Below the pieces are notes generated by a model that did no database searches, was not told the DNA's origin, and saw nothing but the letters and a program-made list of their open reading frames with translations. A stretch of 32,835 nt of DNA from the IMG/VR virus record IMGVR_UViG_3300027833_003644, positions 1-32,835 of that record; one strand, 5' to 3'. Source of the DNA: a virus. A program made the translations under genes and the position numbers. Positions within the stretch are counted from its first letter, which is position 1. Each line of letters opens with the position of its first letter. Below are positions 2,938 through 32,835 of the stretch, piece by piece.

Positions 2938-3552
2938 ATGCAGATGATACCAATATTTGGAGCATATGTAGGTGCCGCAAAACTTGAAAGTTTAGATGTA
3001 AACGCTGCACTAGAATATGTAAAAACATTAGATGAAAAAGATGCATACGGCGGCGATAACGGTGCTGTTACTATAACTCAGCGATTGCTCGATGCACCAA
3101 TGTTTAGCGAAGTTAAGAAAGAATGTGAACACTTAGCTAAAGCATATGTTGAAGTACAAGGGCACACAGTAGATCAAGTACAAATAGCAAGCTCTTGGGG
3201 TAACACACTAAGAAAGGATGAACCAATACATCCTCATACGCACCCTAATAGTTATATAAGCGGAGTACTTTACCTAACTGGAGGTTCTTCATTAAATTTT
3301 CATCATCCACTCGTAACAGAAGACTTGTTTACATTTAGACCAGTAGTAGTTTGGGACGCTGAAAATCCACATACGTGGCAAGTAATGAGTATGAATCCTG
3401 AACCAGGAGCATTGTTCTTATTTCCTTCAAAACTTAAACACCATGTTGATAATAACGAAAATGATTTCCGTTATTCAATTGCATTTAATACGTTGCCAAC
3501 AGGACCAATTGGCGATAATACTAAAGAAATGAATATAGCTACAGTAAAATAA
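2938..3552 (+). CDS. 2OG-Fe(II) oxygenase-like protein, copy 2
   Basis: This 204-residue tandem paralogue of the gene at 2315 keeps every block: SSWGNTL (85-91), HPHTHPNSYISGVLYL (98-113; H100 and H102 as candidate ligands), FPSKLKHHV (162-170) and RYSIAFN (178-184). It differs mainly in the 33-45 region (a DAYGGDNGAV insertion) and in the C-terminal tail. An AAGGA ribosome-binding site stands about 8 bases before the start. The spacing of ligand motifs is the same in both copies, so both are probably active, perhaps on different substrates or as a heterodimer. That last point is inference. Confidence 0.78.
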   Translation: MQMIPIFGAYVGAAKLESLDVNAALEYVKTLDEKDAYGGDNGAVTITQRLLDAPMFSEVKKECEHLAKAYVEVQGHTVDQVQIASSWGNTLRKDEPIHPHTHPNSYISGVLYLTGGSSLNFHHPLVTEDLFTFRPVVVWDAENPHTWQVMSMNPEPGALFLFPSKLKHHVDNNENDFRYSIAFNTLPTGPIGDNTKEMNIATVK

Positions 3553-11697: not shown

Positions 11698-14600
11698 ATG
11701 GCAAAACTAGATATTGATATTGGTGTAGAGGGTAATGACGGTACAGGCGATAGTATTCGCGAGTCATTCCGCAAAGTAAACGAAAACTTCCAAGAGCTGT
11801 ACGCGGCCTTTGGCGTTGGAGGTAACATTAGCTTTACTACACTAGGTGACACACCAAATGCGTTAGAAGGTGACAAGGTACTATACACAGTACCAACAGC
11901 AGATGGTCCACAAGTAGGACTATTTAATCTTGTTAGTGATGTTGCTGCAGGTGACAGTGATACAGATAGTATTACTATCGAACGAGATGGTGCAAACCTA
12001 ATTCTTAAAACATCATTTAGAAGTGTTGCAAATGATGATAGACCAGCACTAGGTGGCGGACTCAATGCTCAAGGATACGGAATTGCCGGCGTAGGAATTG
12101 ATCAAGCAGCTGTTACTGATTGGAATAGTAAACATAACTTCTCACCAGAACGTGCAGACATTACTGTAGACGATCTTGTAATTACAAAAGGATACGCTGA
12201 TTCTAGATATGTAGCTGGTGACAGACCATTACGTATTGGTGACGAGCCTGCAACAATAGAAGATACAGACTACATCGTAACAGTACAAAGCTATGCTGAT
12301 GGTAATATTGTACTTCCTGGACATGGATATACAAAAACAGTTGACGGAACACCGTTTATATTTAAAGCAGAAGATACAGATCCTACAGGGATTGTAAGTG
12401 GCGACACTTATTATCTAAGATTTGTAAATGCTGACGAACTTAGTGTACACAGAACACAAGAAGGCGGATTACAGAATACTGACAAAGCATACATCACACA
12501 TACTATTGATGTAGACGATATTCATAAATTTACTGACGCAGCATATAATACAGACTTAGCCGGCCTTTGGTTAGACAATCAAGCAATACCAAGAAAGAGT
12601 ATTGTAAGACGCCAAGGCGACACAATGGAAGGGCCGCTAATACTTAGTGATAGCCCAGGAGAACTAGCAGGATTAACTACCAGTGAAGAAGACTTACAAG
12701 CCGCTACTAAATTTTATGTAGATAACACTTCTTATAGTTCACCGACTAACATTTATGTATCTACATCAGGTGACGATACTATGCGTGGTGTTCCATCAGG
12801 CAAAGAAGGTACATCGCCAAGTTATGCATACCGCTCAATTAATGCAGCGGCGCAACGTGCAGAAGAAATGATGAAAGCTTCTACTATTGAAGCAGGTCCA
12901 TACATGCAAACTATCACTAGAGATGGTGGTACAGCAAACGCTGAAGTTGTTAGTGCAGAGATTGACGGTGCGTTGTTTAATGAAACACGTACACTTATTA
13001 CAAACAACAGAGCATTCTTAATTAAAGAACTTACAGCATACTTAAAATTTAAATATCCTGAATTCGAATACGATGTTGATCTTTGCGAAAGAGACACAGG
13101 CTTAATGCTTGACGCTGTAGCATTTGACATGAACAGAAGTCAAAGTGCTGTATTAGCAACAGCAAATAGTTTAACACGTATTGCAGGTGAACGCTACTAT
13201 GCTAGTGCAAGTGCTAGAATAGCAATTACACGACAGTTAACACAAACAGTAGATCACATTGAAACACTACGTGATTATTTGGCTGACTATGTATTATTAA
13301 ATCGTCCTTACAAGCAAGTTTCAATTAGTGGTGTTAGTCAGGATTTAATCTGTAGAGTTACAACATCACTAGCACACGGATTTGAAAGCAAGAACATTGT
13401 TAAGATGACTGACATTGTAGGAATGACAGAAGTTAATGATACGTTCTACTATGTAAAACCAGTATCGTCTACACAGTTTGAAATCTTTACAGACGAAGCA
13501 TTAGAAATACCAGTTAACAGTCTTGCGTTTTCAGCATACTCAAGTAGTGGTGTTGTAGGACAAGTTTTCCAAACAGACGACAAACAATTTTCAGATTCTG
13601 TTGCACTTCCAACAGGAACACTTGAGCGTCAAGAAGTTAGAAACAGATTTGACTTAATTGTTGAAATTGTATCAGACGGTATAGATGCTGGATCTCGTAC
13701 AGTACAAGGGCGCACATATAACTTAAAAATTAACAATGGATCGCTAACAAACTTAGATCAGTTCTTAGACATTAGACCAGGTAAAGTTATCTTTGGTAAA
13801 ATATCCGGTGCGCAAGGGCGTATTGTAGAAACTATAACAGAAACAGATGGTAGTGGCGGAAACTTTGATTTAATAAAATTACATCTATTAAAAGCAATTG
13901 ACTTCATTGAAGGCGAAGGACTAGAGTTTGGTAACTTTGTGTATCAGAAGCAAATTGGTATTATGGTAGAAACAGGACAGTACGAAGAAGACTATCCAAT
14001 TAAGATTGCTCCAAACGTTACTGTTAGAGGTGACGAGTTTAGACGTGTAATTGTGCGTCCGAAGCGCAGAGTATCACAATCTAAGTGGGCAAAAACATAC
14101 ATTTATCGTGATAAAGAATTTGACGGCATTGAAACAGCATCAGCTGGATCACGTTTTTATAACCAAACAGGTGATTGGCAAGGGTACTTTGGTTATCACT
14201 ATCTAACTAATCCTGAAAAAGAAGAAAACGTTGGCATTAAGGTAACTAATGTTGGAGAATACTTAGCGTCAGCTGCTATACTTAAAGAAAACAAACTGTT
14301 TATTACTGAAGAAGTAATTAGCTACATTGATAATAATACAGCAGATATACTTTATGATAAAACACAATTTGGTGATGACTTATTTGCTTTAATAACAGGT
14401 ATTACATACGATGTTGTATTTGGCACTAACTTTAATGCAAGATACTTTGGACAACGTTTCCAACGTTCAAGTAGCATATACTTAGATCCAGCATTACAAA
14501 CATTATGGGTATTTGGTCTTACAGAAGCAAGGTCAATTATTACAGGATTACCAGCTGTTGCTAGTTCATCAGATGCTACTACAAGAGCAACTAATGCTAT

Positions 14601-17600
14601 AAATGAAATTATTGATATTATTAATAACGGTACAGTAGATACTGATATTGCTGTTGATGCACTAACACTACCTACTCCTACAACACCTTTAACAGCAAGC
14701 GCACCAGCCGCTGTAGTAAGACTACAAAACAACAGAGACTTTTTAGCAGCTGAAGGTTTAGCATATCTACAATCAATTGCTCCTAGAAAGTATTTCAACG
14801 ATGCTATTAGAATTAGAGACTTTAAAGAACTAGTTGACGGTGTTAGTTATGACGTATTGTATGGTGGTAACTTTGGTACTAGAGAATTTGCTAAAAACTT
14901 ATTTGTTGACGGCGTACTTCGCTTAGAACTAACTACTAGACAAGAAACAATTGACACACTTACTAGATTAATTAGTGTAACAAGTGATATCCTTTTAGGT
15001 AATTCTGTAACTCCTACAACTGGCAATACAGAATCTGTTATTGGAACGGGTTCTAATGCAACAAGTGCAGAAGTTAATAATGTTACAACTTATATTACTA
15101 TTGTAAAAACACAACTTGAAAACAACAACCTTCTTAGCTTAAACTCTAGCACGTTACCAAACCTTGTTAACGAAGCTGTAACACTAACAGATGCTAAAAA
15201 TGAAATTGATGGTGCAACACCAACAATTAATACTAACGCTATTGCTGTAATGGATACAAACGCTGGCCTAAACTATAGAAGAGAAAAATGTCGCAGAGAT
15301 GTTGGATTAGTTGTAGACGCACTAATTAGAGACTTGTTAAATGGCGGAGACGAATTTAGTACAGAAACACAAGGACAGTACTACGACAGCTACGTTGCAC
15401 AAACAAGTTTAGGTGGCTTTAGCGGCCAAGAGAACGCAACTAAAAATGCAATTAAGTACATTGGTACAATTGCAGGAAGATTGATACAAGGTGCTTATGA
15501 TCCATTACTAATTGAACAAACAGTAAGTGACGCAAGTTATGTTGAACCAGACTTTAGATACGGAGCAGGTGAAGTACAGACTAGTACAATTGTTACTAAT
15601 TTAATTAACAAGATTGTGTTTGCATTTGATCGTAGATACAATCCACCAAAGCGTAATGATGAACTAGATGTGTTCTTAATGAACGATGCTACTAGAATCC
15701 AAAACATGACTGTTCAAGGACACGGCGGCTTTATGGCAGTGCTTGACCCTGAAGGTCAAATTCTTACTAAGTCTCCATATATCCAAGTTGGTTCAAGTTT
15801 CTCTAAGAGTATTAACAAGAAACACTTTGCTGGTGGTATGTTTGTTGATGCGTATGTTGGTAACTTACCTGCATATGTTCCGGCAACAATTGATCCAGAA
15901 GGCGACGGAAGTTCAATATCAGGTAAAGTAAACAACTTTGAAATATGGGTACGTTCAGAAGAAGGACAAGGACTGTTTAACAGAGAACCAGAACTACCAT
16001 GTCCGTTCTATGTAGAAGGTAGACGTTTCCAAGTAAATGCTATATCAGATTACGATAGCGGCAACGGTTGGTGTAAACTTTATCTTGATAAAAACTCAAA
16101 CGCAGGTGCGGGTTATGACGAAACACAGTTTGAAGAAAACCCAGGACAAATAGCAAGAACTGTATATTTACAAACAGCTGGTAACAGAAGTATACTAGGC
16201 AACGACTTTACACAAATTAACGACTTAGGTTATGCACTTGTAACAAACAACGGTGCGTTCTCTGAGATGGTTAGTATGTTTACATATTACTGTCAGGCTG
16301 CATATTATGCTAAGAACGGCTCAGAGATTAGATCAACAACAGGTTCAAATGGCTATGGTAACTTTGGCTTAGTTGCTGAGGGTGCTGATCCAAACGAAAT
16401 TCCAGATCAGGTAACATATGAATATAATATGTCAAATCCTGCAAAGACTGTAACGTTTTTACAAGGCGGCGGCGACACTAACATTCTTGATGCTAGTAGT
16501 ATATATGTATATGATTTAAAATCTGTACCATTTGCTGGGTCAGAGTTTGTTGTACATCATCCAGGAAGTGCAGGATCACTAAGCTATAAAGTTAGTGCTG
16601 TTTCGATTGATACTACAGTAACTAAAACCGACGGTGTATACGATAATACTATTTACAGATTACAAATACAAGGTACAGCAGACGGTGACGGTGGACAATA
16701 CTTTAACAAACTTAAAGAAACTGTAGCAGACGGTACATTCATTGAATATAGATACGGTACTGTACACCAGTTTGATGGCCTTAGAGATCAACAGAATATT
16801 AAAACAAGACCAAGTACCGCTATTAACTTTGATGAAAGCGATGACGTAACATATCGTTCAATTGCATTTGCAAGTAATGATAACTTTGGTACACCAGTTG
16901 ACAGTGATAGTATTATTGCTACATTTGATGAAACATATGACATCATTGAACTAATAACTGATCCAGATAACATTACCGGAAATGGTAACAGTGTAGGCGA
17001 TACAACACTTGCTATTAGAACTACAGTAGGCGAAGCTACAAAACTTATTGATGCAGACATACTACGTCTAACAAGAGACATTGCAGGCAAACAGCCAGGT
17101 GATGCAGGATATGCAGGCGGATTGATATTTACATGGGCAGGACGTACACACCAAATATCAAACTTTGCCCTAGACACAACAGCAATAGATCCTGTAAACT
17201 TTAGTACAGACGGTAGAAGATATAAAATTACAGTCCTTGGTAACACTGACTGGAATGCTGTGGCAGGAACTAGCGGAGTTGTATATGCTGTAGACGATAT
17301 TATACGTCCAACATCAGCGTCAAATGCAGGAACAACAGGTAGAGGAACAGACCAAGGCGCAGGTATACTTACAATTGAATCAGCAGCAATAACAGATATT
17401 ACATCAGGTGGTACTGGTATCGCAACAGCATTGCCAGGAACAGCAATACCGTTAGTTGCTGCACTACCTGCATTAGCTACAGCTGAAATTACTGTAGCAA
17501 TATCATTGTGTAGAGCTACGTCACATGACTTTACACAAATTGGTTCAGGTGGATTTAACGACAGTAACTATCCAAATGTACTATTAGGTCAACCAGTTAA

Positions 17601-20600
17601 CTCACTGGCAGCATTTTACTCAGATGCTCCGGGTGCTGAGAAAGCACAAGTTTGGGAAAGACGCAAAGGGCGTGTGTTCTGGATGGCAACTGACCAATAT
17701 GGATTCTTCCGTGTAGGTAAGTATTTCAATGTTGACCAAGCACAAGGTTCAATCAGTTTCTCCGGCGAACTTACAATTACTAATGCTAACGGCTTAGGAT
17801 TTAAGAAAGGTGTCGAAATTGACGAGTTCTCAATTGATGACAATATGGCAGATGAATCAGAAGGTGCTGTACCTACAGAATTTGCTGTAGTTAATTACAT
17901 CAATAAACGTTTAGGCAGAGATAAAAACGACAATGTAGTTGCAGGTGCGATTACTCCTGGTTACTTACCATTATCAGGTAGTGCAGAAATGTCTAACTCT
18001 TTACGCTTAGGTAATAACAAAATACAAAATGTTGCAACACCTACAGCAGGAAGTGATGCATCAACTAAAGCATATGTAGACGCAAGAGTACTTGAGTTTG
18101 ATAGTTATGAAGCATTAAGAAACACTACAGATAACAGACCAGAAGGCGGCGATGTAGTTGTATACACAGGTATTAAGAAAGTATTAATTGAAGTACCTAG
18201 TGATTCAGCTGGTAGTCAAACATTTGTAGTTGGCGATCTAATAACAGATCCGAGTGGTACAAAGTCTGCAAGAATTGTAGACCTAGTACAAACAACTGAT
18301 GCAATTGTAGGCGAAAACGAGCCAGGGCAGAATATATGGATTGTGTTCTACGAACTACAAGGCGTAAGCGGCGACTTCCTACTAACAGATAACTTAATCA
18401 AAGGTGTAACAACAAAAGCAACTGTTAGTGCAGCAATGCTTAGAGGACCATTTGAAGAAGTTGGTCACGCAAGAGAAGCATCAACTAGTGTAATTAACTA
18501 CACTGTTACACGAACTGATAGTGTACTTGATGATGCACTAGTAGGACCAATTGCAGAAGTTGATTTCCAAATTCAAAATGACTCGATTGTTAATGCTGAT
18601 ATTAACTCATCTGCTAGTATACAACAAAGTAAACTATTACTAGAACGTGCTAAACCACGTTCAACAAGTTCAGGACTATTTGGAAGTAATAATGCAGTTG
18701 GCCAAGGAAACAGAGGACTAGCATCGTTTGATGACGATAACTTATCACATGAGATAGAAGTAACTGTAAACTTAGGTGTAACTATTGTTGCAGGAGATTA
18801 TATATACCAAGGATCTAAAATTGGTACTGTTGTAAATAGTATTTCTAATGGAACTATATTTGTAATTAGAACATCAGACGCATTTACAGTTGATGGTTCA
18901 ACTATCCTACAGAAAGCATCGTTTACTGGCGGAGTAGAAGGTTCAAAAATAGCACTAGGTGCTACAATAACTAACATCAACGAAAGTGGATATATTGGTC
19001 TAAAAGATAGAGCATTAGGTTATAACAAACTAGAAACAATTGCAAGCGAAAACTTATTAGGACGCTATAATGCTCTTACAGGTGATATTGAATCAGTACC
19101 ATTTGAAAGAGTTATTGATCAAGGTTTTGGTATTCAAGATACTGACTTTGTTAACAGCGAAAACACGGTGATTACAGGACAAGTACTTACATTTGGTACA
19201 AACGTAAGTTTAGACAATGGTGAAACACTAGTACAAAACCAGGGTGCTGGTATTATTGTTGAAGGTACTGTACAAGGTGCTGTTGTTTCTGAGAAGAAAG
19301 TATATGTTATAAATGTTATTAGACAAGGTACATCAACAGCAGCTGCATTTAATGCATCAGCAGGTATAGTAGACAGTAATAGCAATGCTGTAGGAACACC
19401 TACAGAAATTACAGGCTCCACACAAAACATTAGTGGTAAAGCAATGGTACAACTTCAAGAAGGTGTATATGCTACAACACAAATTAGTAGTGGTTCAGCA
19501 AACGATAGTATTGCTAGAAGGTCACCAACAGGTGGGCTACAAGCTAACACATTTGCTGTTGGTGGATCTGCTGATAACATTGTATTGTCAGATTCAGGCA
19601 ACACGCTAACACTTAGTACAGTACAAGGCGGCGTAATATTAACAGCAGCAGGCACAACTAATCCTACTGTAGAAATACCGGGTAACATTGATCAAGGTGC
19701 AACTAACGTAACACAAAGTAATTTCCAAGCTGGTAGTAGCTTTAACAATGATCCAATGCTGTCAACTAACTGGATATATGCTCCGTTTATTGAGGCGCCA
19801 GGAGAAGGTGATTCAGGTAGTACAGGTATTGGTATTGGTGCTGGGGGTGGCTTTACAAATTCAGCAGCTGATAGAATACTATTAGTTACTGGCGGTAATG
19901 AAAGACTTAGAGCACAAGACACTGGAGTAGTAGTTACTGGATCATTAGTAGCTGGTAGTTATTCAGGAGGCACTGTAAGTGGTACATCAGGAACATTTAG
20001 TGGTGCTGTAAGTGGTACAACTGGTACATTCAGTAGTACCGTAAGTGGTACATCAGGAACATTTAGTGCAGGCGTAAGTGGTACAACAGCATCATTTACA
20101 GGCAATGTTGATTTAGGTAATGCATCAGCTGATACTATATCAATGAATGGTAGTGTTGATACTAATATTATTCCAACTGGAACACGTAATATCGGTAGTG
20201 CAACAAGTACTTGGAGTACTGTATACGCTACAACATTCTCAGGTACAGCTACTACAGCAAGATATGCTGACTTAGCAGAAAACTACTTAGCTGATGGCAA
20301 GTACGAAGCAGGTACTGTTATTGCACTAGGCGGATCAGCAGAAGTAACAGCTACAGTTACTATGAAGGATCATAGAGTAGCAGGCATTGTTTCAACTAAC
20401 CCAGCACACTTAATGAACTCGCACTTAGAAGGTGAGCATGTAGTTGCTGTTGCGCTAACAGGGCGTGTACCATGTAAAGTGATTGGTAAAGTTGCAAAAG
20501 GTGATATGCTAGTTTCTAGTAATGTGCCAGGATATGCTATGGTAGACAACGATCCAAAACTTGGTACACTGATTGGTAAAGCAATTGAAGGCAAAGTAGA

Positions 20601-20640
20601 CGACGGCAAAGGTGTTGTTGAGGTATTAGTCGGTAAGTAA
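11698..20640 (+). CDS. Giant modular tail-fibre protein (2,980 aa)
   Basis: This very long fibre or adhesin has a clear modular order. Residues 1-38 hold the module GNDGTGDSIRESFRKVNENF, shared with the protein at 23456. Phage-fibre repeats follow: GDTMEGPLILSD near 306 and AATKFYVDN near 336. INIYVSTSGDD-like sequence near 351 resembles the entry of a right-handed beta-helix. CERDTGLMLDAVAFD near 463 and CRRDVGLVVDAL near 1198 are related repeats, as are GITYDVVFGTNF near 901 and GVSYDVLYGGNF near 1048. MTVQGHGGFMAVLDPEGQ lies near 1335 and PLSGSAEMSNSLRLGNNKIQ near 2092. Four 11-residue SGT repeats occupy 2758-2801. The C-terminal domain from about 2854 (ARYADLAENY, RVAGIVSTNPAHLMN, VGK end) is typical of marine T4-like fibres. 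A CGGAG site precedes the start. It probably forms a host-contact fibre; its exact position on the virion is not shown. Confidence 0.87.
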   Translation: MAKLDIDIGVEGNDGTGDSIRESFRKVNENFQELYAAFGVGGNISFTTLGDTPNALEGDKVLYTVPTADGPQVGLFNLVSDVAAGDSDTDSITIERDGANLILKTSFRSVANDDRPALGGGLNAQGYGIAGVGIDQAAVTDWNSKHNFSPERADITVDDLVITKGYADSRYVAGDRPLRIGDEPATIEDTDYIVTVQSYADGNIVLPGHGYTKTVDGTPFIFKAEDTDPTGIVSGDTYYLRFVNADELSVHRTQEGGLQNTDKAYITHTIDVDDIHKFTDAAYNTDLAGLWLDNQAIPRKSIVRRQGDTMEGPLILSDSPGELAGLTTSEEDLQAATKFYVDNTSYSSPTNIYVSTSGDDTMRGVPSGKEGTSPSYAYRSINAAAQRAEEMMKASTIEAGPYMQTITRDGGTANAEVVSAEIDGALFNETRTLITNNRAFLIKELTAYLKFKYPEFEYDVDLCERDTGLMLDAVAFDMNRSQSAVLATANSLTRIAGERYYASASARIAITRQLTQTVDHIETLRDYLADYVLLNRPYKQVSISGVSQDLICRVTTSLAHGFESKNIVKMTDIVGMTEVNDTFYYVKPVSSTQFEIFTDEALEIPVNSLAFSAYSSSGVVGQVFQTDDKQFSDSVALPTGTLERQEVRNRFDLIVEIVSDGIDAGSRTVQGRTYNLKINNGSLTNLDQFLDIRPGKVIFGKISGAQGRIVETITETDGSGGNFDLIKLHLLKAIDFIEGEGLEFGNFVYQKQIGIMVETGQYEEDYPIKIAPNVTVRGDEFRRVIVRPKRRVSQSKWAKTYIYRDKEFDGIETASAGSRFYNQTGDWQGYFGYHYLTNPEKEENVGIKVTNVGEYLASAAILKENKLFITEEVISYIDNNTADILYDKTQFGDDLFALITGITYDVVFGTNFNARYFGQRFQRSSSIYLDPALQTLWVFGLTEARSIITGLPAVASSSDATTRATNAINEIIDIINNGTVDTDIAVDALTLPTPTTPLTASAPAAVVRLQNNRDFLAAEGLAYLQSIAPRKYFNDAIRIRDFKELVDGVSYDVLYGGNFGTREFAKNLFVDGVLRLELTTRQETIDTLTRLISVTSDILLGNSVTPTTGNTESVIGTGSNATSAEVNNVTTYITIVKTQLENNNLLSLNSSTLPNLVNEAVTLTDAKNEIDGATPTINTNAIAVMDTNAGLNYRREKCRRDVGLVVDALIRDLLNGGDEFSTETQGQYYDSYVAQTSLGGFSGQENATKNAIKYIGTIAGRLIQGAYDPLLIEQTVSDASYVEPDFRYGAGEVQTSTIVTNLINKIVFAFDRRYNPPKRNDELDVFLMNDATRIQNMTVQGHGGFMAVLDPEGQILTKSPYIQVGSSFSKSINKKHFAGGMFVDAYVGNLPAYVPATIDPEGDGSSISGKVNNFEIWVRSEEGQGLFNREPELPCPFYVEGRRFQVNAISDYDSGNGWCKLYLDKNSNAGAGYDETQFEENPGQIARTVYLQTAGNRSILGNDFTQINDLGYALVTNNGAFSEMVSMFTYYCQAAYYAKNGSEIRSTTGSNGYGNFGLVAEGADPNEIPDQVTYEYNMSNPAKTVTFLQGGGDTNILDASSIYVYDLKSVPFAGSEFVVHHPGSAGSLSYKVSAVSIDTTVTKTDGVYDNTIYRLQIQGTADGDGGQYFNKLKETVADGTFIEYRYGTVHQFDGLRDQQNIKTRPSTAINFDESDDVTYRSIAFASNDNFGTPVDSDSIIATFDETYDIIELITDPDNITGNGNSVGDTTLAIRTTVGEATKLIDADILRLTRDIAGKQPGDAGYAGGLIFTWAGRTHQISNFALDTTAIDPVNFSTDGRRYKITVLGNTDWNAVAGTSGVVYAVDDIIRPTSASNAGTTGRGTDQGAGILTIESAAITDITSGGTGIATALPGTAIPLVAALPALATAEITVAISLCRATSHDFTQIGSGGFNDSNYPNVLLGQPVNSLAAFYSDAPGAEKAQVWERRKGRVFWMATDQYGFFRVGKYFNVDQAQGSISFSGELTITNANGLGFKKGVEIDEFSIDDNMADESEGAVPTEFAVVNYINKRLGRDKNDNVVAGAITPGYLPLSGSAEMSNSLRLGNNKIQNVATPTAGSDASTKAYVDARVLEFDSYEALRNTTDNRPEGGDVVVYTGIKKVLIEVPSDSAGSQTFVVGDLITDPSGTKSARIVDLVQTTDAIVGENEPGQNIWIVFYELQGVSGDFLLTDNLIKGVTTKATVSAAMLRGPFEEVGHAREASTSVINYTVTRTDSVLDDALVGPIAEVDFQIQNDSIVNADINSSASIQQSKLLLERAKPRSTSSGLFGSNNAVGQGNRGLASFDDDNLSHEIEVTVNLGVTIVAGDYIYQGSKIGTVVNSISNGTIFVIRTSDAFTVDGSTILQKASFTGGVEGSKIALGATITNINESGYIGLKDRALGYNKLETIASENLLGRYNALTGDIESVPFERVIDQGFGIQDTDFVNSENTVITGQVLTFGTNVSLDNGETLVQNQGAGIIVEGTVQGAVVSEKKVYVINVIRQGTSTAAAFNASAGIVDSNSNAVGTPTEITGSTQNISGKAMVQLQEGVYATTQISSGSANDSIARRSPTGGLQANTFAVGGSADNIVLSDSGNTLTLSTVQGGVILTAAGTTNPTVEIPGNIDQGATNVTQSNFQAGSSFNNDPMLSTNWIYAPFIEAPGEGDSGSTGIGIGAGGGFTNSAADRILLVTGGNERLRAQDTGVVVTGSLVAGSYSGGTVSGTSGTFSGAVSGTTGTFSSTVSGTSGTFSAGVSGTTASFTGNVDLGNASADTISMNGSVDTNIIPTGTRNIGSATSTWSTVYATTFSGTATTARYADLAENYLADGKYEAGTVIALGGSAEVTATVTMKDHRVAGIVSTNPAHLMNSHLEGEHVVAVALTGRVPCKVIGKVAKGDMLVSSNVPGYAMVDNDPKLGTLIGKAIEGKVDDGKGVVEVLVGK
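19969..20100 (+). repeat. Four tandem 33-bp repeats in fibre gene
   Basis: Four in-frame 33-base units at 19969, 20002, 20035 and 20068 encode 11-residue repeats with consensus xxVSGT(S/T)GTFS; the last copy has degenerated to VSGTTASFT. Copies 1 and 3 share an identical 24-base stretch (gtaagtggtacatcaggaac and onward), so unequal recombination could easily change the copy number. Confidence 0.85.
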
Positions 20641-26874: not shown

Positions 26875-27459
26875 ATGGCAGATAGTGCAATTACATATAC
26901 AGGAATCGACGAAGAGTTTCCGGTACCAGGACAGGATAATGATAGTCAAGGCTTCCGTGATAACTTCTCGCAAATTAAAACAGGGCTTGAAACAGCTAAA
27001 CTAGAACTAACAGACTTGCTTACTTCGGTAGCACGTACAGACACAGCTAATGACTTTAACGGTAATAATATTGAAGATGCAAACTTAATTGCTGTATCTG
27101 GAGCAATTTATCAACCTGCAGATCTTGTTAGTGATACACAAGTTGAATGGAATGATGGCGTAGCACAAAAGTTTAATATTACTAGTGGGCTTACACTAAC
27201 ATTTACTAATTTTCCAACTGGTGGTCAAAAGTATGCTTCAACAAGATTAATACTAAAAGGCAATGGCGGAACACACACTGTTAACTTTGAAACAGGTGGC
27301 AACGGAAACTTGTATATCAGTAACTTAGCAGCAGCTCTTGATAGCAACGGAGACTTTGTTGTATCTGATACTAGTCAGCCACATGTACTCGATGTATGGT
27401 CTGATAACGGACTTGACATTTATATTGACTATATTGGTCAATTTATGCTACAGGCGTAA
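26875..27459 (+). CDS. Small virion protein with fibre-type cap
   Basis: This 194-residue protein opens with a short strand (AITYTGIDEEFPVPGQDND) and a SQGFRDNFSQIKTGLE helix, a diverged version of the attachment module of the giant fibre and of the 23456 protein. The rest is one beta-sandwich cap (VEWNDGVAQKFNIT, LTFTNFP, DVWSDNGLDIYIDYIGQFML) resembling the end of the 20676 fibre. It therefore looks like a minimal fibre made of head plus cap without a shaft. It has its own late promoter. The stop is 1 base before the next gene. Confidence 0.72.
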   Translation: MADSAITYTGIDEEFPVPGQDNDSQGFRDNFSQIKTGLETAKLELTDLLTSVARTDTANDFNGNNIEDANLIAVSGAIYQPADLVSDTQVEWNDGVAQKFNITSGLTLTFTNFPTGGQKYASTRLILKGNGGTHTVNFETGGNGNLYISNLAAALDSNGDFVVSDTSQPHVLDVWSDNGLDIYIDYIGQFMLQA

Positions 27460-27460
27460 T

Positions 27461-27700
27461 ATGTTTCATCCACTAGCAAATATGAGCGGCTTATCTGATT
27501 CAGACCTTGAAAACAAGATATCTGAATTAGGCCGCAAATATTTTCAATCATCAAACCCTGGCGTACAATCACAAATTGCTACGCTACTTGAACAATACAA
27601 AGAAGAATCATCTACAAGAAGAATTATTGCTGCACAACGAGCAAAAGAAAATGCAGAAAACGGCGATAATTCACTTGACAATTTAATAAATGTAAGTTAA
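27461..27700 (+). CDS. Small helical protein of unknown function
   Basis: The frame is open from 27338, but ATG 27461, 1 base after the upstream stop, is the sensible start and gives 79 residues (MFHPLANMSGLSDSDLENKI...). The protein is almost entirely helical and charged (ELGRKYFQSSNPGVQSQIATLLEQYK; RRIIAAQRAKENAENGD). It fits a small assembly, scaffold-like or tail-tube accessory protein, but I recognise no named family. Because it is tightly coupled to the cap protein, late expression is expected. Confidence 0.72.
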   Translation: MFHPLANMSGLSDSDLENKISELGRKYFQSSNPGVQSQIATLLEQYKEESSTRRIIAAQRAKENAENGDNSLDNLINVS

Positions 27701-27709
27701 AATAAGTGT

Positions 27710-28267
27710 ATGCTTATGAAGACAGATGAACTCGGTATCCCACGATTTACAAACAAAGACTTAGTTGACATGATCTATAGTGGTCATGTTGACAAGTGTC
27801 ACGTTGTACTATGTGACCCTAGTGATGACATAGATCAGTTTAACACAGCAATGCGTGAGCAACACTTACCTGAACTTAAACAATATATCCCAATAGATGT
27901 AGACGAAAAGACTTTTGACAGTGCGTTACAGAGTGAATGGTTTATGCCTGATGAATATAAAGAGATTAATCCAAATAAATGGTTAGAAGCAAAACTAATG
28001 GAAAAACTACAAATACAAGATCCTGTAGCTTTGCGTGATACACAAGAATGGATCCGTGTAACCGAAGAACTTACAGAATACTTTGGTCGTGGTATGTATC
28101 CATTATTACAGTATATGATATATTTGGTAGACTTCATGCGTGAAAATGACATTGTATGGGGTGTAGGTAGAGGATCAAGTGTAGCAAGTTATGTGTTATA
28201 TTTAATAGGCGTACATAAAATTAATTCCATCCAGTTTGACCTGGATTGGCGAGAGTTCTTGAGATAA
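27710..28267 (+). CDS. DNA polymerase III alpha-like fragment (stand-alone)
   Basis: This is a 185-residue protein. Residues about 113-185 align by eye with the entry to the palm of C-family polymerases (DnaE/PolC): RVTEELTEYF, PLLQYMIYLVDFMRENDIVW, GVGRGSSVASYVLYLIGV (151-168, with GRGS at 153-156) and FDLDWREFL at the end. In DnaE the same strand continues to RFLNPER and then to the catalytic D-x-D (PDFDIDF), but here a stop codon follows REFLR. The polymerase residues are therefore absent. The first 110 residues have no matching motif. It is too well conserved to look like random decay. Possible roles are nucleotide or primer binding, a dominant-negative interaction, or a fold reused for another function. 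Confidence 0.65.
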   Translation: MLMKTDELGIPRFTNKDLVDMIYSGHVDKCHVVLCDPSDDIDQFNTAMREQHLPELKQYIPIDVDEKTFDSALQSEWFMPDEYKEINPNKWLEAKLMEKLQIQDPVALRDTQEWIRVTEELTEYFGRGMYPLLQYMIYLVDFMRENDIVWGVGRGSSVASYVLYLIGVHKINSIQFDLDWREFLR

Positions 28268-28298: not shown

Positions 28299-28637
28299 AT
28301 GGTACAAAGAATTAAAGGTGCAAAAGTTTATAAAACTATGCAAGGCAAAACCGTTGATATGGATATGCTACGCAAACGTAATGAAATGACACCTGCTGTA
28401 GGCAATGCTAGAGTAAACGCTCGTGGCGATGAACTAGGTGCAGGTGGACAAATTGTTCGTAAGAAAGAAGATGTCGTAAAAGAGTATTATGAAAATTCTA
28501 AAGGCGTTGTTGACGAAGCTGCTGTTAGACAATCTACAGGTGATCAAACTGAACTAGATGCTAATGGCAAAGACATTACCGATGACGATGACTGGATTGA
28601 AGACGAAGACGGCAATTTTGTAAAAAAAGGTGAATAA
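28299..28637 (+). CDS. Conserved-looking hypothetical acidic protein
   Basis: The 112-residue protein has a basic N-terminus (MVQRIKGAKVYKTMQGKTV), a central RNEMTPAVGNARVNARGDEL block (27-46) and an acidic C-terminus (DITDDDDWIEDEDGNFVKKGE). The central block resembles a recurring element of small T4-like marine phage proteins that I cannot name. The ribosome-binding site TTAGGAGAA precedes the start. The stop overlaps the GroES-like start by one base (TAATG). A separate promoter is not clear; TATAAT at 28275-28280 lacks a partner at the right distance. Confidence 0.72.
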   Translation: MVQRIKGAKVYKTMQGKTVDMDMLRKRNEMTPAVGNARVNARGDELGAGGQIVRKKEDVVKEYYENSKGVVDEAAVRQSTGDQTELDANGKDITDDDDWIEDEDGNFVKKGE

Positions 28638-29041
28638 TGGCTATTAATATTAATACTATTAAATCTAATGGTTTGCGGGCTATTGGAAATCGTGTACTAG
28701 TTACAGATATGTTCTTTGGTGAACAAACTACAAAGAGCGGCTTAATTATTAGTTCCGACGATGGTACAGAAAGAGGAATTTATCCTCGCTGGGCTAAAGT
28801 ATTACACAAAGGCCCCGAAAACAATGATACATATGATATTGGTCATTGGATACTTGTAGAACATGGTAGATGGACACGCGGCATGAACATAGATGTCGAA
28901 GGTGAAGCACTAGAAGTTCGAATGGTAGAAACAGAAAGCATTCTTGCATACGCAAGTGAGAAGCCAGATGGGTTAACTATTGGCAATACATCAGAGCATG
29001 GAACAGTCAAGGACATGCCAACATTTAATGGAGTAATATAA
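28637..29041 (+). CDS. GroES-like co-chaperonin (T4 gp31-like)
   Basis: This 134-residue protein has a GroES-type beta-barrel: an opening AIGNRVLVTDMFF (15-27), a loop GEQTTKSGLII (28-38) whose hydrophobic LII matches the IVL of the GroES mobile loop, then WAKVLHKGPEN (52-62), DIGHWILVEHGRW (67-79) and MVETESILAY (96-105). A C-terminal extension (about 108-134) is not part of the fold. T4 gp31 replaces GroES so that the major capsid protein can be folded by host GroEL, and the same use is likely here. It sits in a coupled cluster with the MazG- and SGNH-type genes. Confidence 0.68.
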   Translation: MAININTIKSNGLRAIGNRVLVTDMFFGEQTTKSGLIISSDDGTERGIYPRWAKVLHKGPENNDTYDIGHWILVEHGRWTRGMNIDVEGEALEVRMVETESILAYASEKPDGLTIGNTSEHGTVKDMPTFNGVI

Positions 29042-29398
29042 ATGACAAATGTATTTAAAGATATTGATAAATTTGCAGTAGCCTGCGATCAAGCACCGAG
29101 CGAGGATAACTATGAGTTATACCTTAACCTTATTGCTGAAGAATACGGAGAGCTTGTAGATGCAAAAGCATACGGCAACAAAGTTGCTCAACTTGATGCA
29201 CTAGTAGATATCCTAGTTGTAACTATTGGCGCTATACGTGCAGGTAATATGGACGGCGAAGGCGCTTGGAAAGAAGTAATGGACACAAACTTTGCTAAGA
29301 TTGATCCAGATACTGGTAAAGTTGAGAAGCGTGAAGACGGCAAAGTGCTAAAACCAGAAGGTTGGGTTGGCCCCGAGTTAGAACAGTTCATTAGATGA
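29042..29398 (+). CDS. MazG-like NTP pyrophosphohydrolase, copy 1
   Basis: This 118-residue all-alpha NTP-PPase-like protein has IAEEYGELVDA (31-41; E33, E34, E37) and LDALVDILVV (51-60; D52, D56), which together supply the metal-binding EExxE and DxxxD of the MazG/PRA-PH/dUTPase-2 superfamily. A C-terminal FAKIDPDTGKVEKREDGKVL segment and KPEGWVGPEL are common to phage members. These enzymes remove non-canonical nucleotides or lower alarmone levels, but the substrate is uncertain here. It starts directly after the GroES-like stop and overlaps the SGNH gene by ATGA. A second MazG-like protein lies at 31655. Confidence 0.75.
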   Translation: MTNVFKDIDKFAVACDQAPSEDNYELYLNLIAEEYGELVDAKAYGNKVAQLDALVDILVVTIGAIRAGNMDGEGAWKEVMDTNFAKIDPDTGKVEKREDGKVLKPEGWVGPELEQFIR

Positions 29399-30063
29399 GC
29401 TTGTGGGTCTTTGGCGATAGTTACTGTATAGAAACTCAAGCACAAGATGAAACACATTGGAAGTATGAACACAACTGGATGGACCTAGTATCGCAAGGAC
29501 TAGGTGATAATGATATTATTCCAATATCACAGTTTGGTGTTTCAAACGACTGGATCTTTAAGTTCTTTTTAGAACATACTTCAAAATTTAAACCCGGTGA
29601 TAGTGTTATTGTACAACTAACTAGCGCCGGGCGTAAATGGTTCCTGCCAAACGAGCCACAGAAAAGTAATATATTTTATTCTCAGGGATGGACACAAAAA
29701 GTTTCAAATGCAATTGATCAATATCGCGAACACTTACACAACGATCAGTTAGACAACATTCAGTATACGTCATACGTATATGCAATTATGTTTATGACGC
29801 ATTCTATAAAAGATGTTAATTTTTTAATCGTGCCAGGATTTGATTCAGTGCCAGGTGTTATTGGTAATTTAACATCTGACATTTGTAACTTTGAATTAGG
29901 CAACGGACAAAAAGATTTCTTTGAAAAGCACAACGGATTTGATCCTAGACTAAATCATATGTCAATAGAGAATCATATAGTCCTTGCAGACAAAATAGTA
30001 GACTATTTTAAAAACGGTACTGTGTTAGATCTTACTACAGGATTTAAAGGAGACATGTATTAA
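29395..30063 (+). CDS. SGNH-hydrolase-like protein, copy 1
   Basis: This 222-residue protein has WVFGDSYC (4-11; Ser9 in the GDS nucleophile block), QFGVSNDWIF (46-55; N51), DSVIVQLTSAGR and DPRLNHMSIENH (183-194; H188), a layout matching GDSL/SGNH esterases with Ser and His at both ends. It may hydrolyse an acyl or acetyl ester on a glycan or lipid, but the substrate is unknown. Like the next gene it lacks a signal peptide, so it either acts inside the cell or is carried in the virion. It overlaps the upstream gene by ATGA and the next gene by TAATG. Confidence 0.7.
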   Translation: MSLWVFGDSYCIETQAQDETHWKYEHNWMDLVSQGLGDNDIIPISQFGVSNDWIFKFFLEHTSKFKPGDSVIVQLTSAGRKWFLPNEPQKSNIFYSQGWTQKVSNAIDQYREHLHNDQLDNIQYTSYVYAIMFMTHSIKDVNFLIVPGFDSVPGVIGNLTSDICNFELGNGQKDFFEKHNGFDPRLNHMSIENHIVLADKIVDYFKNGTVLDLTTGFKGDMY

Positions 30064-30779
30064 TGTTACATGTATTTGGTTGTAGTTTTTCAGTAGCACA
30101 TGATCATAAAAATGATCTAATAGGTGAGGGTGGAATGAATCCAACCTTTGTTCCTATAGAACATACTTGGACTGAACTTGTTAGCAAACATTTAATTGGT
30201 ACTACTGAACACAACAATACCGCACTTTGCGGCGTTGGTAACGATTATATATTTGACACATTTACAAATACATTACCAAAGATACAAAAAGGTGACTATG
30301 TTATAGTACAACCTACTTCTTTTTTAAGAGAATGGTTGTTTGAAGATAGGCCTGAAATGGCTAATTTCTTATCAGCAAAATACGAAGTTGGCTTACATAT
30401 TAATCAACCAGAGTCTGATGCATTAGAGTTATACAGAAATCATCTGTATTCTGAACATAAACAAAAGATAGTGTACAACGCTTTCATGCAAGCATTTTTT
30501 AGTTGGGCAATACCATTTGGTGAAATAAATGTTAGAATGTTAATTCTTCCAGGGTTTCATACCGTTGATGGCGTTGAAGGTGCTTTAATTGATCCAAGTC
30601 ATAGAGAAATTGGTAACGACAAAGCTGTACAGAAACATATGGCAAGAACAGGTGGTGATAATAGATATAATCACTTTTCAGAAGTTAATCACAAAGTACT
30701 AGCAAACAAGGTTATCGACTTTTTTGATAACGCCGCTCAAGTAGATCTTACTACAGACTTTATTACCAATATAGTTTAA
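30063..30779 (+). CDS. SGNH-hydrolase-like protein, copy 2
   Basis: This 238-residue paralogue of the preceding gene has HVFGCSFS (3-10) with Cys replacing Asp before the putative nucleophile Ser8, GVGNDYIF (57-64; N60), GDYVIVQPTSFLREW and DNRYNHFSEVNH (199-210; H204). The C-terminal 40 residues match the first copy in length and spacing, ending in a shared VDLTTxF. The N-terminus carries an extra stretch (DHKNDLIGEGGMNPT). The GDS-to-GCS change leaves the Ser and His in place, so activity is not excluded. Tandem duplication followed by divergence is clear. Confidence 0.7.
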   Translation: MLHVFGCSFSVAHDHKNDLIGEGGMNPTFVPIEHTWTELVSKHLIGTTEHNNTALCGVGNDYIFDTFTNTLPKIQKGDYVIVQPTSFLREWLFEDRPEMANFLSAKYEVGLHINQPESDALELYRNHLYSEHKQKIVYNAFMQAFFSWAIPFGEINVRMLILPGFHTVDGVEGALIDPSHREIGNDKAVQKHMARTGGDNRYNHFSEVNHKVLANKVIDFFDNAAQVDLTTDFITNIV

Positions 30780-30926: not shown

Positions 30927-31463
30927 ATGGCTACACATGGCACTATTGATTTAGAAACTATTGACACATGTCCACAAGCAACTGTATTATCACTAGGTGC
31001 TGTTAAATTTAATCCATTAAATGACAGCGAGCCACACTCAGAACTATACCTTAAAATTAATATCGACGAACAAGATCAGCTAGGTCGTACAGCTAGTGAC
31101 AGCACTATTGAGTGGTGGAGCAAGCAAGATCCAAAGATCATGGACGAAGCGTTCGACCAAACAGGTGCTGTTAGCGTAGATGAGGCTTTACGTCAAATTA
31201 GCAAATGGGTTGTTGGTGTTGATACATTATGGGGACAAGGATACGGTTTTGACTATACCATACTGGAAGACATGTTCCGCCGCTGCGGAAAGCCTATTCC
31301 GTGGAACTTCTGGATTATACGGGATTCTAGAACGCTTTTTGGCTGTTGTCAAGCAGATCCTCGCAAAGCATTTCAAACAGATTTACACAACGCATTAGCA
31401 GATGCATATTTTCAATCAAAAGCAATACAAGTTGCATATAAAGAGTTAGGACTTAAAAGATGA
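30927..31463 (+). CDS. dexA: DexA-like 3'-5' exonuclease
   Basis: This 178-residue DEDD-type exonuclease has IDLETID (7-13; D8, E10), STIEWWSKQDP (59-69, matching the STIEWW-x-x-Q-x-P element of T4 DexA), GFDYTILEDMF (107-117; D109) and LHNALADA (153-160; H154, D159). It should degrade DNA 3' to 5', aiding host DNA breakdown or recombination. At 178 residues it is shorter than T4 DexA (227 aa), mainly by missing an insertion before the last motif. The start lies 15 bases after the tRNA with GAGGAA in between, so it probably shares the tRNA promoter. The stop overlaps the next start by ATGA. Confidence 0.85.
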   Translation: MATHGTIDLETIDTCPQATVLSLGAVKFNPLNDSEPHSELYLKINIDEQDQLGRTASDSTIEWWSKQDPKIMDEAFDQTGAVSVDEALRQISKWVVGVDTLWGQGYGFDYTILEDMFRRCGKPIPWNFWIIRDSRTLFGCCQADPRKAFQTDLHNALADAYFQSKAIQVAYKELGLKR

Positions 31464-31654: not shown

Positions 31655-31933
31655 ATGAAAAATAGTCCTATTAATACACTACAACAACTAATGTGCATTA
31701 CAATGGAAGAGTGTGGTGAACTAACACAACGCTGTTCAAAGATGATGCGTAAGTTTAGTACAATCGACGAAGCAACAGAAGACCAACGTGTTAAACTGTT
31801 AGAAGAAGCAGGCGATGTGTTGTGTATGATTGAACTAATGGTAGAACACGGCCTCTTGACAAATGACGAATTACGTGTTAGAATAGATGTAAAGCGAGAT
31901 AAACTTAAAAAATGGAGTACGTTAATTAAATGA
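31655..31933 (+). CDS. MazG-like NTP pyrophosphohydrolase, copy 2
   Basis: This 92-residue protein is a single-domain MazG-like fold: MEECGELTQRC (17-27; E18, E19, E22) followed by LLEEAGDVLCMIEL (48-61; E51, D54), the EExxE...ExxD pattern of the superfamily. It is shorter than copy 1 and lacks its C-terminal PEGWVGPEL extension, so the two may prefer different substrates. It overlaps the clamp-loader gene by ATGA, consistent with coordinated nucleotide clean-up and replication. Confidence 0.75.
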   Translation: MKNSPINTLQQLMCITMEECGELTQRCSKMMRKFSTIDEATEDQRVKLLEEAGDVLCMIELMVEHGLLTNDELRVRIDVKRDKLKKWSTLIK

Positions 31934-32835
31934 AAGACTTATGGGTAGAAAAGTATCGTCCGAAAACAGTAGATGGCTACGTATTTCGTGATGACGCACA
32001 GCGCAACCAAGTAAACACTTGGATTAAGGAAAACACTATTCCGCATTTGCTGTTTAGTGGCAACGCTGGCATTGGTAAAACTACACTTGCTAAATTATTG
32101 TTTAACGAATTAGATCTTAATCCACTAGATATCTTAGAGATTAACGCAAGTCGAACAAACTCAGTAGATGATGTACGTGATAAGATTGTTAACTTTGTAC
32201 AAATGATTCCGTTTGGTGACTTTAAAGTTGTATTGTTAGACGAGGCAGATTACTTGTCAACAAACGCACAAGCGGCATTGCGTGGCGTGATGGAAGAGTA
32301 TCATACTACAGCAAGATTTATTTTAACATGTAACTATCCAAATAAAATTATTCCAGCACTACACAGTCGTTGTCAAGGCTTTCACATTGCTAAGATTGAT
32401 CAGACTGAGTTTACAGCAAGAGTTGCAGAGATTCTTATTACAGAAGGTGTAACTCCAGACTTAGACACACTTGACACATATGTAAAAGGTACGTATCCGG
32501 ACTTGCGTAAGTGTATCAACACAGTGCAGATGAACAGTGTAGACGGAGCACTTACAAAACCCAATGAAGGTGACACAGGCGAAACTGATTGGAAGTTGAG
32601 CATGGTGGAATTATTCAAAGCAGGTAAGATACAAGAAGCACGTAAACTATTGTGTGGCACAGTGCGTACAGAAGAAATGGAAGAAGTGTATCGTTGGTTG
32701 TATGACAACGTTGATTTGTTTCCAGATCCAGATCAAGCTGTGCTAGTTATTAAACAAGGGTTAGTAGATCACACCCTAGTAGTTGATCCTGAGATTAACT
32801 TAGCCGCGGTGCTAATCAAACTAGCGAGGTTATAA
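31930..32835 (+). CDS. 44: Sliding-clamp loader large subunit (gp44-like)
   Basis: This 301-residue AAA+ ATPase loads the sliding clamp (gp45) onto DNA for the phage polymerase. Visible motifs are WVEKYRPKTVDGYV at the N-terminus, Walker A GNAGIGKT (44-51), Walker B VVLLDEAD (100-107), sensor 1 FILTCNYPNK (130-139) and the SRC motif (146-148) that contacts the neighbouring subunit's ATP. Length is close to T4 gp44 (319 aa). The stop TAA ends exactly at the last base of the window, so the gene is complete. The usual partners gp62 and gp45 are not in the window. Confidence 0.92.
   Translation: MKDLWVEKYRPKTVDGYVFRDDAQRNQVNTWIKENTIPHLLFSGNAGIGKTTLAKLLFNELDLNPLDILEINASRTNSVDDVRDKIVNFVQMIPFGDFKVVLLDEADYLSTNAQAALRGVMEEYHTTARFILTCNYPNKIIPALHSRCQGFHIAKIDQTEFTARVAEILITEGVTPDLDTLDTYVKGTYPDLRKCINTVQMNSVDGALTKPNEGDTGETDWKLSMVELFKAGKIQEARKLLCGTVRTEEMEEVYRWLYDNVDLFPDPDQAVLVIKQGLVDHTLVVDPEINLAAVLIKLARL

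What the first reader, a model, noticed from the sequence alone, without database searches (positions are those of the whole stretch)
27710..28267. Stand-alone DNA polymerase III alpha fragment that stops before the catalytic aspartates
Residues 113-185 resemble the DnaE/PolC palm entry including GRGS, and the protein ends where DnaE continues to its D-x-D. A free-standing C-family fragment placed among phage tail genes is unusual. It may be a reused fold rather than a decayed gene, since the frame is intact and has a normal-looking start.
Basis: partly seen in the sequence, partly recalled or inferred. Interest (0 to 1): 0.7.

Follow-up and report, generated by a model that had tools for sequence, protein, structure and literature searches.

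The report
N-terminal half of split phage polymerase
This gene encodes the front half of a very small bacterial-type (DnaE) DNA polymerase that large phages make as two separate proteins, with the catalytic aspartates on a second protein encoded far away; the arrangement was described in 2021, its activity appears untested, and this window adds a marine example.

Summary
ORF 27710-28267 (185 aa) is a C-family (Pol III alpha) palm fragment with an invariant GRGSS, and it stops just before the catalytic D-x-D. It is not decay, and it is probably not a repurposed stand-alone fold. The stop lies at the same residue (0 or +1) in 216 of 216 IMG/VR homologues, and median dN/dS is about 0.19. Every complete relative checked carries a second ~190-aa protein, encoded tens to hundreds of kb away, that begins at the missing residues (typically MPDIDIDF...) and carries all three catalytic aspartates plus a reduced fingers region. 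AlphaFold models of the two proteins map to E. coli Pol III alpha 270-393 and ~401-784, so the break falls just before D401. All 60 GenBank phage records listed with the N-half also have the C-half. The best close relative (236.8 kb marine contig, N-half 83% identical) has both. The C-half is not in this 32.8-kb window, which is a genome fragment. This is the N-unit of the split 'minimal Pol III alpha' reported for group 2.2 jumbo phages by Iyer et al. 2021 (PMC7824862; PHROG 11127 and 11778). It is a new marine member of a known family. Assembly into an active polymerase is inferred; I found no report of a test.

The parts
27710..28267 (+). N-terminal subunit of the split minimal DNA polymerase III alpha (185 aa)
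   Evidence: PF07733 4.5e-9; PHROG 11127 4.6e-37; stop position conserved in 216 of 216; median dN/dS 0.19; AlphaFold model aligns to E. coli Pol III alpha 270-393, Z 11-12
27905..28264 (+). residues 66-185: first part of the Pol-beta-like palm, the part with structural equivalents in Pol III alpha
   Evidence: VIA-align to 5lew Z 13.1, 4jom Z 12.0, PolC 9qrn Z 12.5
28160..28180 (+). GVGRGSS motif (residues 151-157), the presumed dNTP-triphosphate-binding GS motif of the palm
   Evidence: G151, G153, R154, G155, S156 and S157 invariant in 217 of 217 sequences
27710..27904 (+). residues 1-65: phage-specific N-terminal extension in the place of the PHP domain; conserved, function unknown
   Evidence: no Pfam match; dN/dS of residues 1-110 as low as in the rest; pLDDT roughly 60-85
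27461..27700 (+). conserved small protein directly upstream (79 aa, phrog_15348), same operon
   Evidence: present in 74 of 79 marine and 65 of 80 freshwater loci, median gap 13 nt; phrog_15348 2.8e-5
28299..28637 (+). conserved 112-aa protein of unknown function directly downstream (phrog_14844)
   Evidence: present in 76 of 77 and 78 of 78 loci with room
28637..29041 (+). GroES-like co-chaperonin (phrog_931/3188)
   Evidence: present in 71 of 72 and 72 of 72 loci with room
31930..32835 (+). T4 gp44-type clamp loader ATPase, conserved downstream neighbour
   Evidence: phrog_168 1.9e-75; 26 of 28 loci with room

Best explanation
The 185-aa protein is the N-terminal subunit of a heterodimeric, minimal C-family DNA polymerase. 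It supplies the first helices of the Pol-beta-like palm and the GRGSS (GS) motif, which in Pol III alpha contacts the incoming dNTP triphosphate (established for the family, not tested here). The phage is expected to encode, elsewhere in its genome outside this fragment, a ~190-aa C-terminal subunit beginning MPDIDIDF that carries the catalytic strands (D-x-D and the third Asp) and a reduced fingers region. The two would associate non-covalently: the chain break lies in the loop just before D401, and neither protein has room for a split intein. The complex lacks PHP, most or all of the thumb, HhH, OB and tau-binding parts and totals about 375 residues. It would work beside a T4-like family B replicase, probably in a specialised or distributive role such as lagging-strand, gap or repair synthesis. 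Shown: homology, complementary boundaries, co-occurrence, selection. Inferred: physical assembly, polymerase activity, biological role, and the presence of the C-half in this particular phage.
For: Profile membership. The predicted N model matches only C-family polymerases well: 18 chains at Z>=8, E. coli 270-393, M. tuberculosis 303-413, PolC 816-964. The C-half model (pLDDT 91.5) matches E. coli ~400-784 in colinear order, and its profile hits M. tuberculosis DnaE1 at MPDIDIDF 413-424, then 567-663, then 774-788. The C-half is in 8 of 8 complete jumbo phages examined. All 60 phage records listed with the N-half also have the C-half (lists compared by hand). Alishewanella phage Slicko01, an apparent C-only exception, proved to carry a divergent N-half (E=1.3e-15) 11 kb away. 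Marine relatives with both: G038 (N 83% identical to the window, gap ~121 kb), G027, G040. Two C-only long contigs, G039 and G013, also lack the clamp loader and are therefore likely incomplete. D3, D5, D7, K63, D65 and H31 are invariant in 159 of 159 C-halves, and the longest ORF starts exactly 2 residues before D-x-D-x-D in 120 of 158. N-half stop conserved in 216 of 216. Median dN/dS 0.19. Family B polymerase in 8 of 8 isolates and 6 of 6 large contigs. The same conclusion was reached independently in PMC7824862.
Against: The C-half is not in this window, so its presence in this phage is inferred. The two genes lie tens to hundreds of kb apart and are not co-transcribed. I could not model the complex. 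No activity data were found. Without thumb, HhH and clamp-binding parts, affinity for DNA may be poor.
Confidence: 0.85

Rival explanations
1. The N-half is a repurposed stand-alone protein (nucleotide- or DNA-binding, or structural) that no longer takes part in polymerisation.
For: It sits in an operon with a GroES-like and other small proteins next to tail genes; its first 65 residues are phage-specific.
Against: Strict co-occurrence with a catalytically intact C-half that starts where it ends; the conserved stop within 8 residues of the DnaE catalytic motif; invariant GRGSS.
Confidence: 0.08
2. The two halves do assemble, but into a nucleotidyltransferase that is not a templated replicative or repair polymerase (for example template-independent addition, primer or end processing).
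For: The Pol-beta superfamily contains many non-replicative enzymes; the thumb and other DNA-binding domains are lost; a family B replicase is already present.
Against: The C-half keeps the fingers segment and the conserved R-P-x-K and KKxH residues typical of Pol III alpha.
Confidence: 0.15
3. A decaying remnant of a full-length DnaE.
For: It lacks catalytic aspartates and most domains.
Against: dN/dS ~0.19 over 62 unique sequences; identical end in 216 of 216; partner protein conserved.
Confidence: 0.01
4. A mature full-length polymerase is made by split-intein trans-splicing or by RNA- or DNA-level joining.
For: The break is sharp, and bacterial DnaE is known (general knowledge) to be split by a split intein in cyanobacteria.
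Against: The N-half stops at ...EFLR and the C-half usually starts at MPD with no room for intein segments; the genes are far apart.
Confidence: 0.01

Closest known systems
Split minimal DNA polymerase III alpha of group 2.2 jumbo phages (Iyer et al. 2021, PMC7824862); PHROG 11127 (N) and 11778 (C); e.g. RaK2 ORF162, Atu_ph07 gp316, 121Q gp56, XacN1 ORF245
   Same: Same N-unit: homologous, same end before the D-x-D, same operon neighbours (small phrog_15348-type protein in several, 112-aa phrog_14844-type protein, GroES-like protein, gp44 clamp loader); relatives have the distant C-unit and a family B polymerase
   Different: The window sequence is from a marine lineage about 33-57% identical to the isolates over the aligned part; in this lineage the C-half usually starts MPD directly on the catalytic motif; the C-half itself is outside the window
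Bacterial DnaE / PolC (DNA polymerase III alpha, C family)
   Same: Palm segment with GRGS, equivalent to E. coli residues 270-393
   Different: No PHP, catalytic Asp triad, thumb, fingers, HhH, OB or tau-binding parts in this chain; a phage-specific 65-residue N-terminus instead
Full-length phage DnaE (PHROG 405; e.g. Enterococcus phage 9183)
   Same: Same C-family palm motif
   Different: One long polypeptide (the 9183 gene is 3,855 bp) with the catalytic parts in one chain
Marine jumbo phage cluster PGC_A (Weinheimer and Aylward 2022, PMC9123017)
   Same: PF07733 domain protein reported as the gene unique to the cluster that is present in 51.9% of members
   Different: The passages read there report a Pfam hit only, not the split; I did not test whether this window belongs to PGC_A

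Membership tests
Split minimal Pol III alpha, N-unit (group 2.2 jumbo phages) | Stand-alone protein with the Pol III palm N-part and GRGS, ending before D-x-D | tested here: met
Split minimal Pol III alpha, N-unit (group 2.2 jumbo phages) | Separate C-unit with D-x-D, third Asp and template-binding part encoded at a distance in the same genome | tested here: inconclusive
   Absent from this 32.8-kb fragment; present in 8 of 8 isolates and in the closest large relatives G038, G027 and G040
Split minimal Pol III alpha, N-unit (group 2.2 jumbo phages) | Family B DNA polymerase and T4-like clamp loader in the same genome | tested here: inconclusive
   Clamp loader present at 31930-32835; no Pol B in the fragment, but present in relatives
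Split minimal Pol III alpha, N-unit (group 2.2 jumbo phages) | Forms an active polymerase with the C-unit | not testable with these tools
   Complex modelling and biochemistry not available
DNA polymerase III alpha (DnaE/PolC) as a complete enzyme | Catalytic Asp triad, fingers, PHP and HhH in one chain | tested here: not met
   185 aa matching PF07733 positions 21-94 of 260 and TIGR00594 292-391 of 1022 only
Pseudogene | Relaxed selection, disrupted frames | tested here: not met
   median dN/dS 0.19; 216 intact homologous frames with the same end

The most novel reading that the evidence does not exclude
A two-protein C-family polymerase of about 375 residues, far below the ~900-residue bacterial catalytic core, works as a second polymerase beside a family B replicase across a very large marine and freshwater phage clade, including phages below jumbo size. 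Its chain break lies next to the catalytic aspartates, so activity would depend on assembly of the two halves and could be a natural on/off control.
Probability: 0.3. Interest if true: 0.7.

Novelty: new member of a known kind. Interest (0 to 1): 0.38.

Why it matters
If the pair is active it is among the smallest C-family polymerases and the only one known to me that is split at its active site without an intein. That would make the minimal catalytic core of Pol III directly testable, and would bear on why these phages keep a bacterial-type polymerase beside a family B replicase. The family itself has been in print since 2021; what is added here is a sharp definition of the break, near-perfect co-occurrence, selection data and the large marine/freshwater range, including a 141-kb non-jumbo phage.

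Tried and rejected
The C-half was sought in the window by D-x-D-x-D motif scan and by homology, and not found. TIGR00594 found only weak second pieces in XacN1 and Phosso; those led to the C-half family. Ten related contigs of 41-72 kb had no C-half, explained by distance and fragmentation. G039 and G013 looked like C-only genomes but lack the clamp loader too, so they are probably incomplete. Slicko01 looked like C-only, but a profile search found its N-half. PA5oct gp214, annotated 'DNA polymerase III' (257 aa), was not pursued as a third piece. The upstream 27338-27700 ORF (real start probably ATG at 27461) was considered as a missing polymerase piece; it is a short protein with no polymerase match. 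Residues 1-65 of the N-half gave no recognisable family, which does not exclude one. Decay and split-intein explanations were rejected on dN/dS and on the absence of any extra sequence at the break.

Full report
Check of the observation. The ORF at 27710-28267 (+) is intact, 185 aa, ATG to TAA. Pfam PF07733 matches residues 111-184 (4.5e-9, over its cut-off), PHROG 11127 'DNA polymerase' matches nearly the whole protein (4.6e-37), and several DnaE models match residues ~89-184. GVGRGSS lies at residues 151-157. No other C-family match and no D-x-D-bearing partner is in the window.

It is not decay. 240 IMG/VR loci (some fetched twice) hold relatives of the query; in all 216 whose frame could be read completely, the stop falls at the same residue (204) or one later (12). 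GRGSS is invariant in 217 sequences. Among 62 unique coding sequences the median pairwise dN/dS (Nei-Gojobori) is 0.19, the same in residues 1-110 and 111-185. Even isolates only 33-57% identical end within two residues of the same point.

The missing half exists. Searching complete jumbo phages with a Pol III profile gave faint second hits in XacN1 and Phosso. Reading those ORFs showed ~190-aa proteins beginning with D-I-D-I-D. A search with one of them found a homologue in 8 of 8 complete phages examined. An alignment of eight shows the D-x-D, the third Asp, R-P-x-K and H invariant. In IMG/VR over 400 stretches encode relatives. In 159 of 159 sequences D3, D5, D7, K63, D65 and H31 are invariant. 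In 120 of 158 the longest possible reading frame begins exactly two residues before the motif, typically MPDIDIDF. Bacterial DnaE has a continuous chain here, and M. tuberculosis DnaE1 reads MPDIDIDFDDRR at 413-424. The two phage proteins therefore abut at a break just before the catalytic strand.

Structure. AlphaFold models (N: 89 sequences, pLDDT 83.5; C: 97 sequences, pLDDT 91.5) match solved Pol III alpha structures. N residues 66-185 align with E. coli 270-393, M. tuberculosis 303-413 and PolC 816-964 at Z 8-13, with unrelated folds at Z 2. The C model aligns with E. coli ~400-784 at Z 6-9, with unrelated folds at Z 3.4 and below. Only 58 residues separate the D-x-D from the third Asp in the phage C-half, against about 150 in E. 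coli (D403 to D555, general knowledge), so the thumb must be largely gone (inference). Residues 1-65 of the N-half are conserved but have no recognised relative.

Co-occurrence. All 60 phage records listed with an N-half also have the C-half (lists compared by hand). Of 63 records with a C-half, the three not listed with an N-half are one 109.5-kb Klebsiella phage record (PP728206), whose completeness I did not check, and two Alishewanella records. I read one of the latter, Slicko01 (141 kb, complete), by profile and found its N-half at E=1.3e-15, ending at about the same place, 11 kb from the C-half. Among IMG/VR contigs, G011, G012, G014, G027, G032, G038 and G040 carry both. G038 (236.8 kb) has an N-half 83% identical to the window's and a clamp loader 89% identical. 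The gap between the genes is 11-226 kb as measured along the records. A family B polymerase is present in 8 of 8 isolates and in 6 of 6 large contigs.

Neighbourhood. The gene order small protein (phrog_15348) - N-half - 112-aa protein - GroES-like protein, with a gp44 clamp loader a few kb further, is nearly constant in marine loci, and its first four genes likewise in freshwater loci. It is recognisable in RaK2, 121Q, Atu_ph07, XacN1, Phosso and others. The N-half thus sits at a junction between tail genes and replication genes.

Known or new. Iyer et al. [quoted passage not shown] PHROGs annotates both halves as DNA polymerase. The Atu_ph07 paper calls gp316 a DNA polymerase III alpha subunit. 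A 2022 survey reports PF07733 as the distinguishing gene of a marine jumbo cluster. I found no biochemical test (only open-licence papers were searchable). The window's gene is therefore a new member of a known family.

Most likely mechanism. Non-covalent assembly of two short chains into one Pol-beta-type active site: the N-half brings the triphosphate-binding GS motif, the C-half the metal-binding aspartates and fingers. Homology, boundaries, co-occurrence and selection are shown; assembly, activity and role are inferred.

Noticed in passing
11698-20640: A single 2,980-codon ORF with tail-fibre matches (phrog_9851, 22593, 19602).
   Followed up: no
2273-2926 and 2938-3552: Two adjacent paralogous ~200-aa proteins with an H-x-H...H pattern resembling 2-oxoglutarate/Fe(II) oxygenases; a third, shorter relative may be 1777-2313. 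Judged by eye only.
   Followed up: no
29395-30063 and 30063-30779: Two tandem, apparently paralogous ~230-aa proteins starting WVFGDSY / HVFGCSF, possibly SGNH-hydrolase-like; no Pfam hit. The first is found in only 3 of 61 related marine loci and 0 of 60 freshwater loci with room, so it looks like an insertion in this operon.
   Followed up: partly
29042-29398 and 31655-31933: Two separate MazG/PRA-PH-type pyrophosphohydrolase-like ORFs within 3 kb.
   Followed up: no
30927-31463: DnaQ-like exonuclease (PF16473, 7.1e-35) between the polymerase N-half and the clamp loader, found in 26 of 35 related loci with room; a candidate proofreading partner, untested.
   Followed up: partly
L453 (OQ508956 67573-68181 and 79023-79538): Alishewanella phage Slicko01, a complete 141-kb genome, carries both polymerase halves 11 kb apart, so the split enzyme is not confined to jumbo phages; its N-half was missed by tblastn and is very divergent.
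   Followed up: yes
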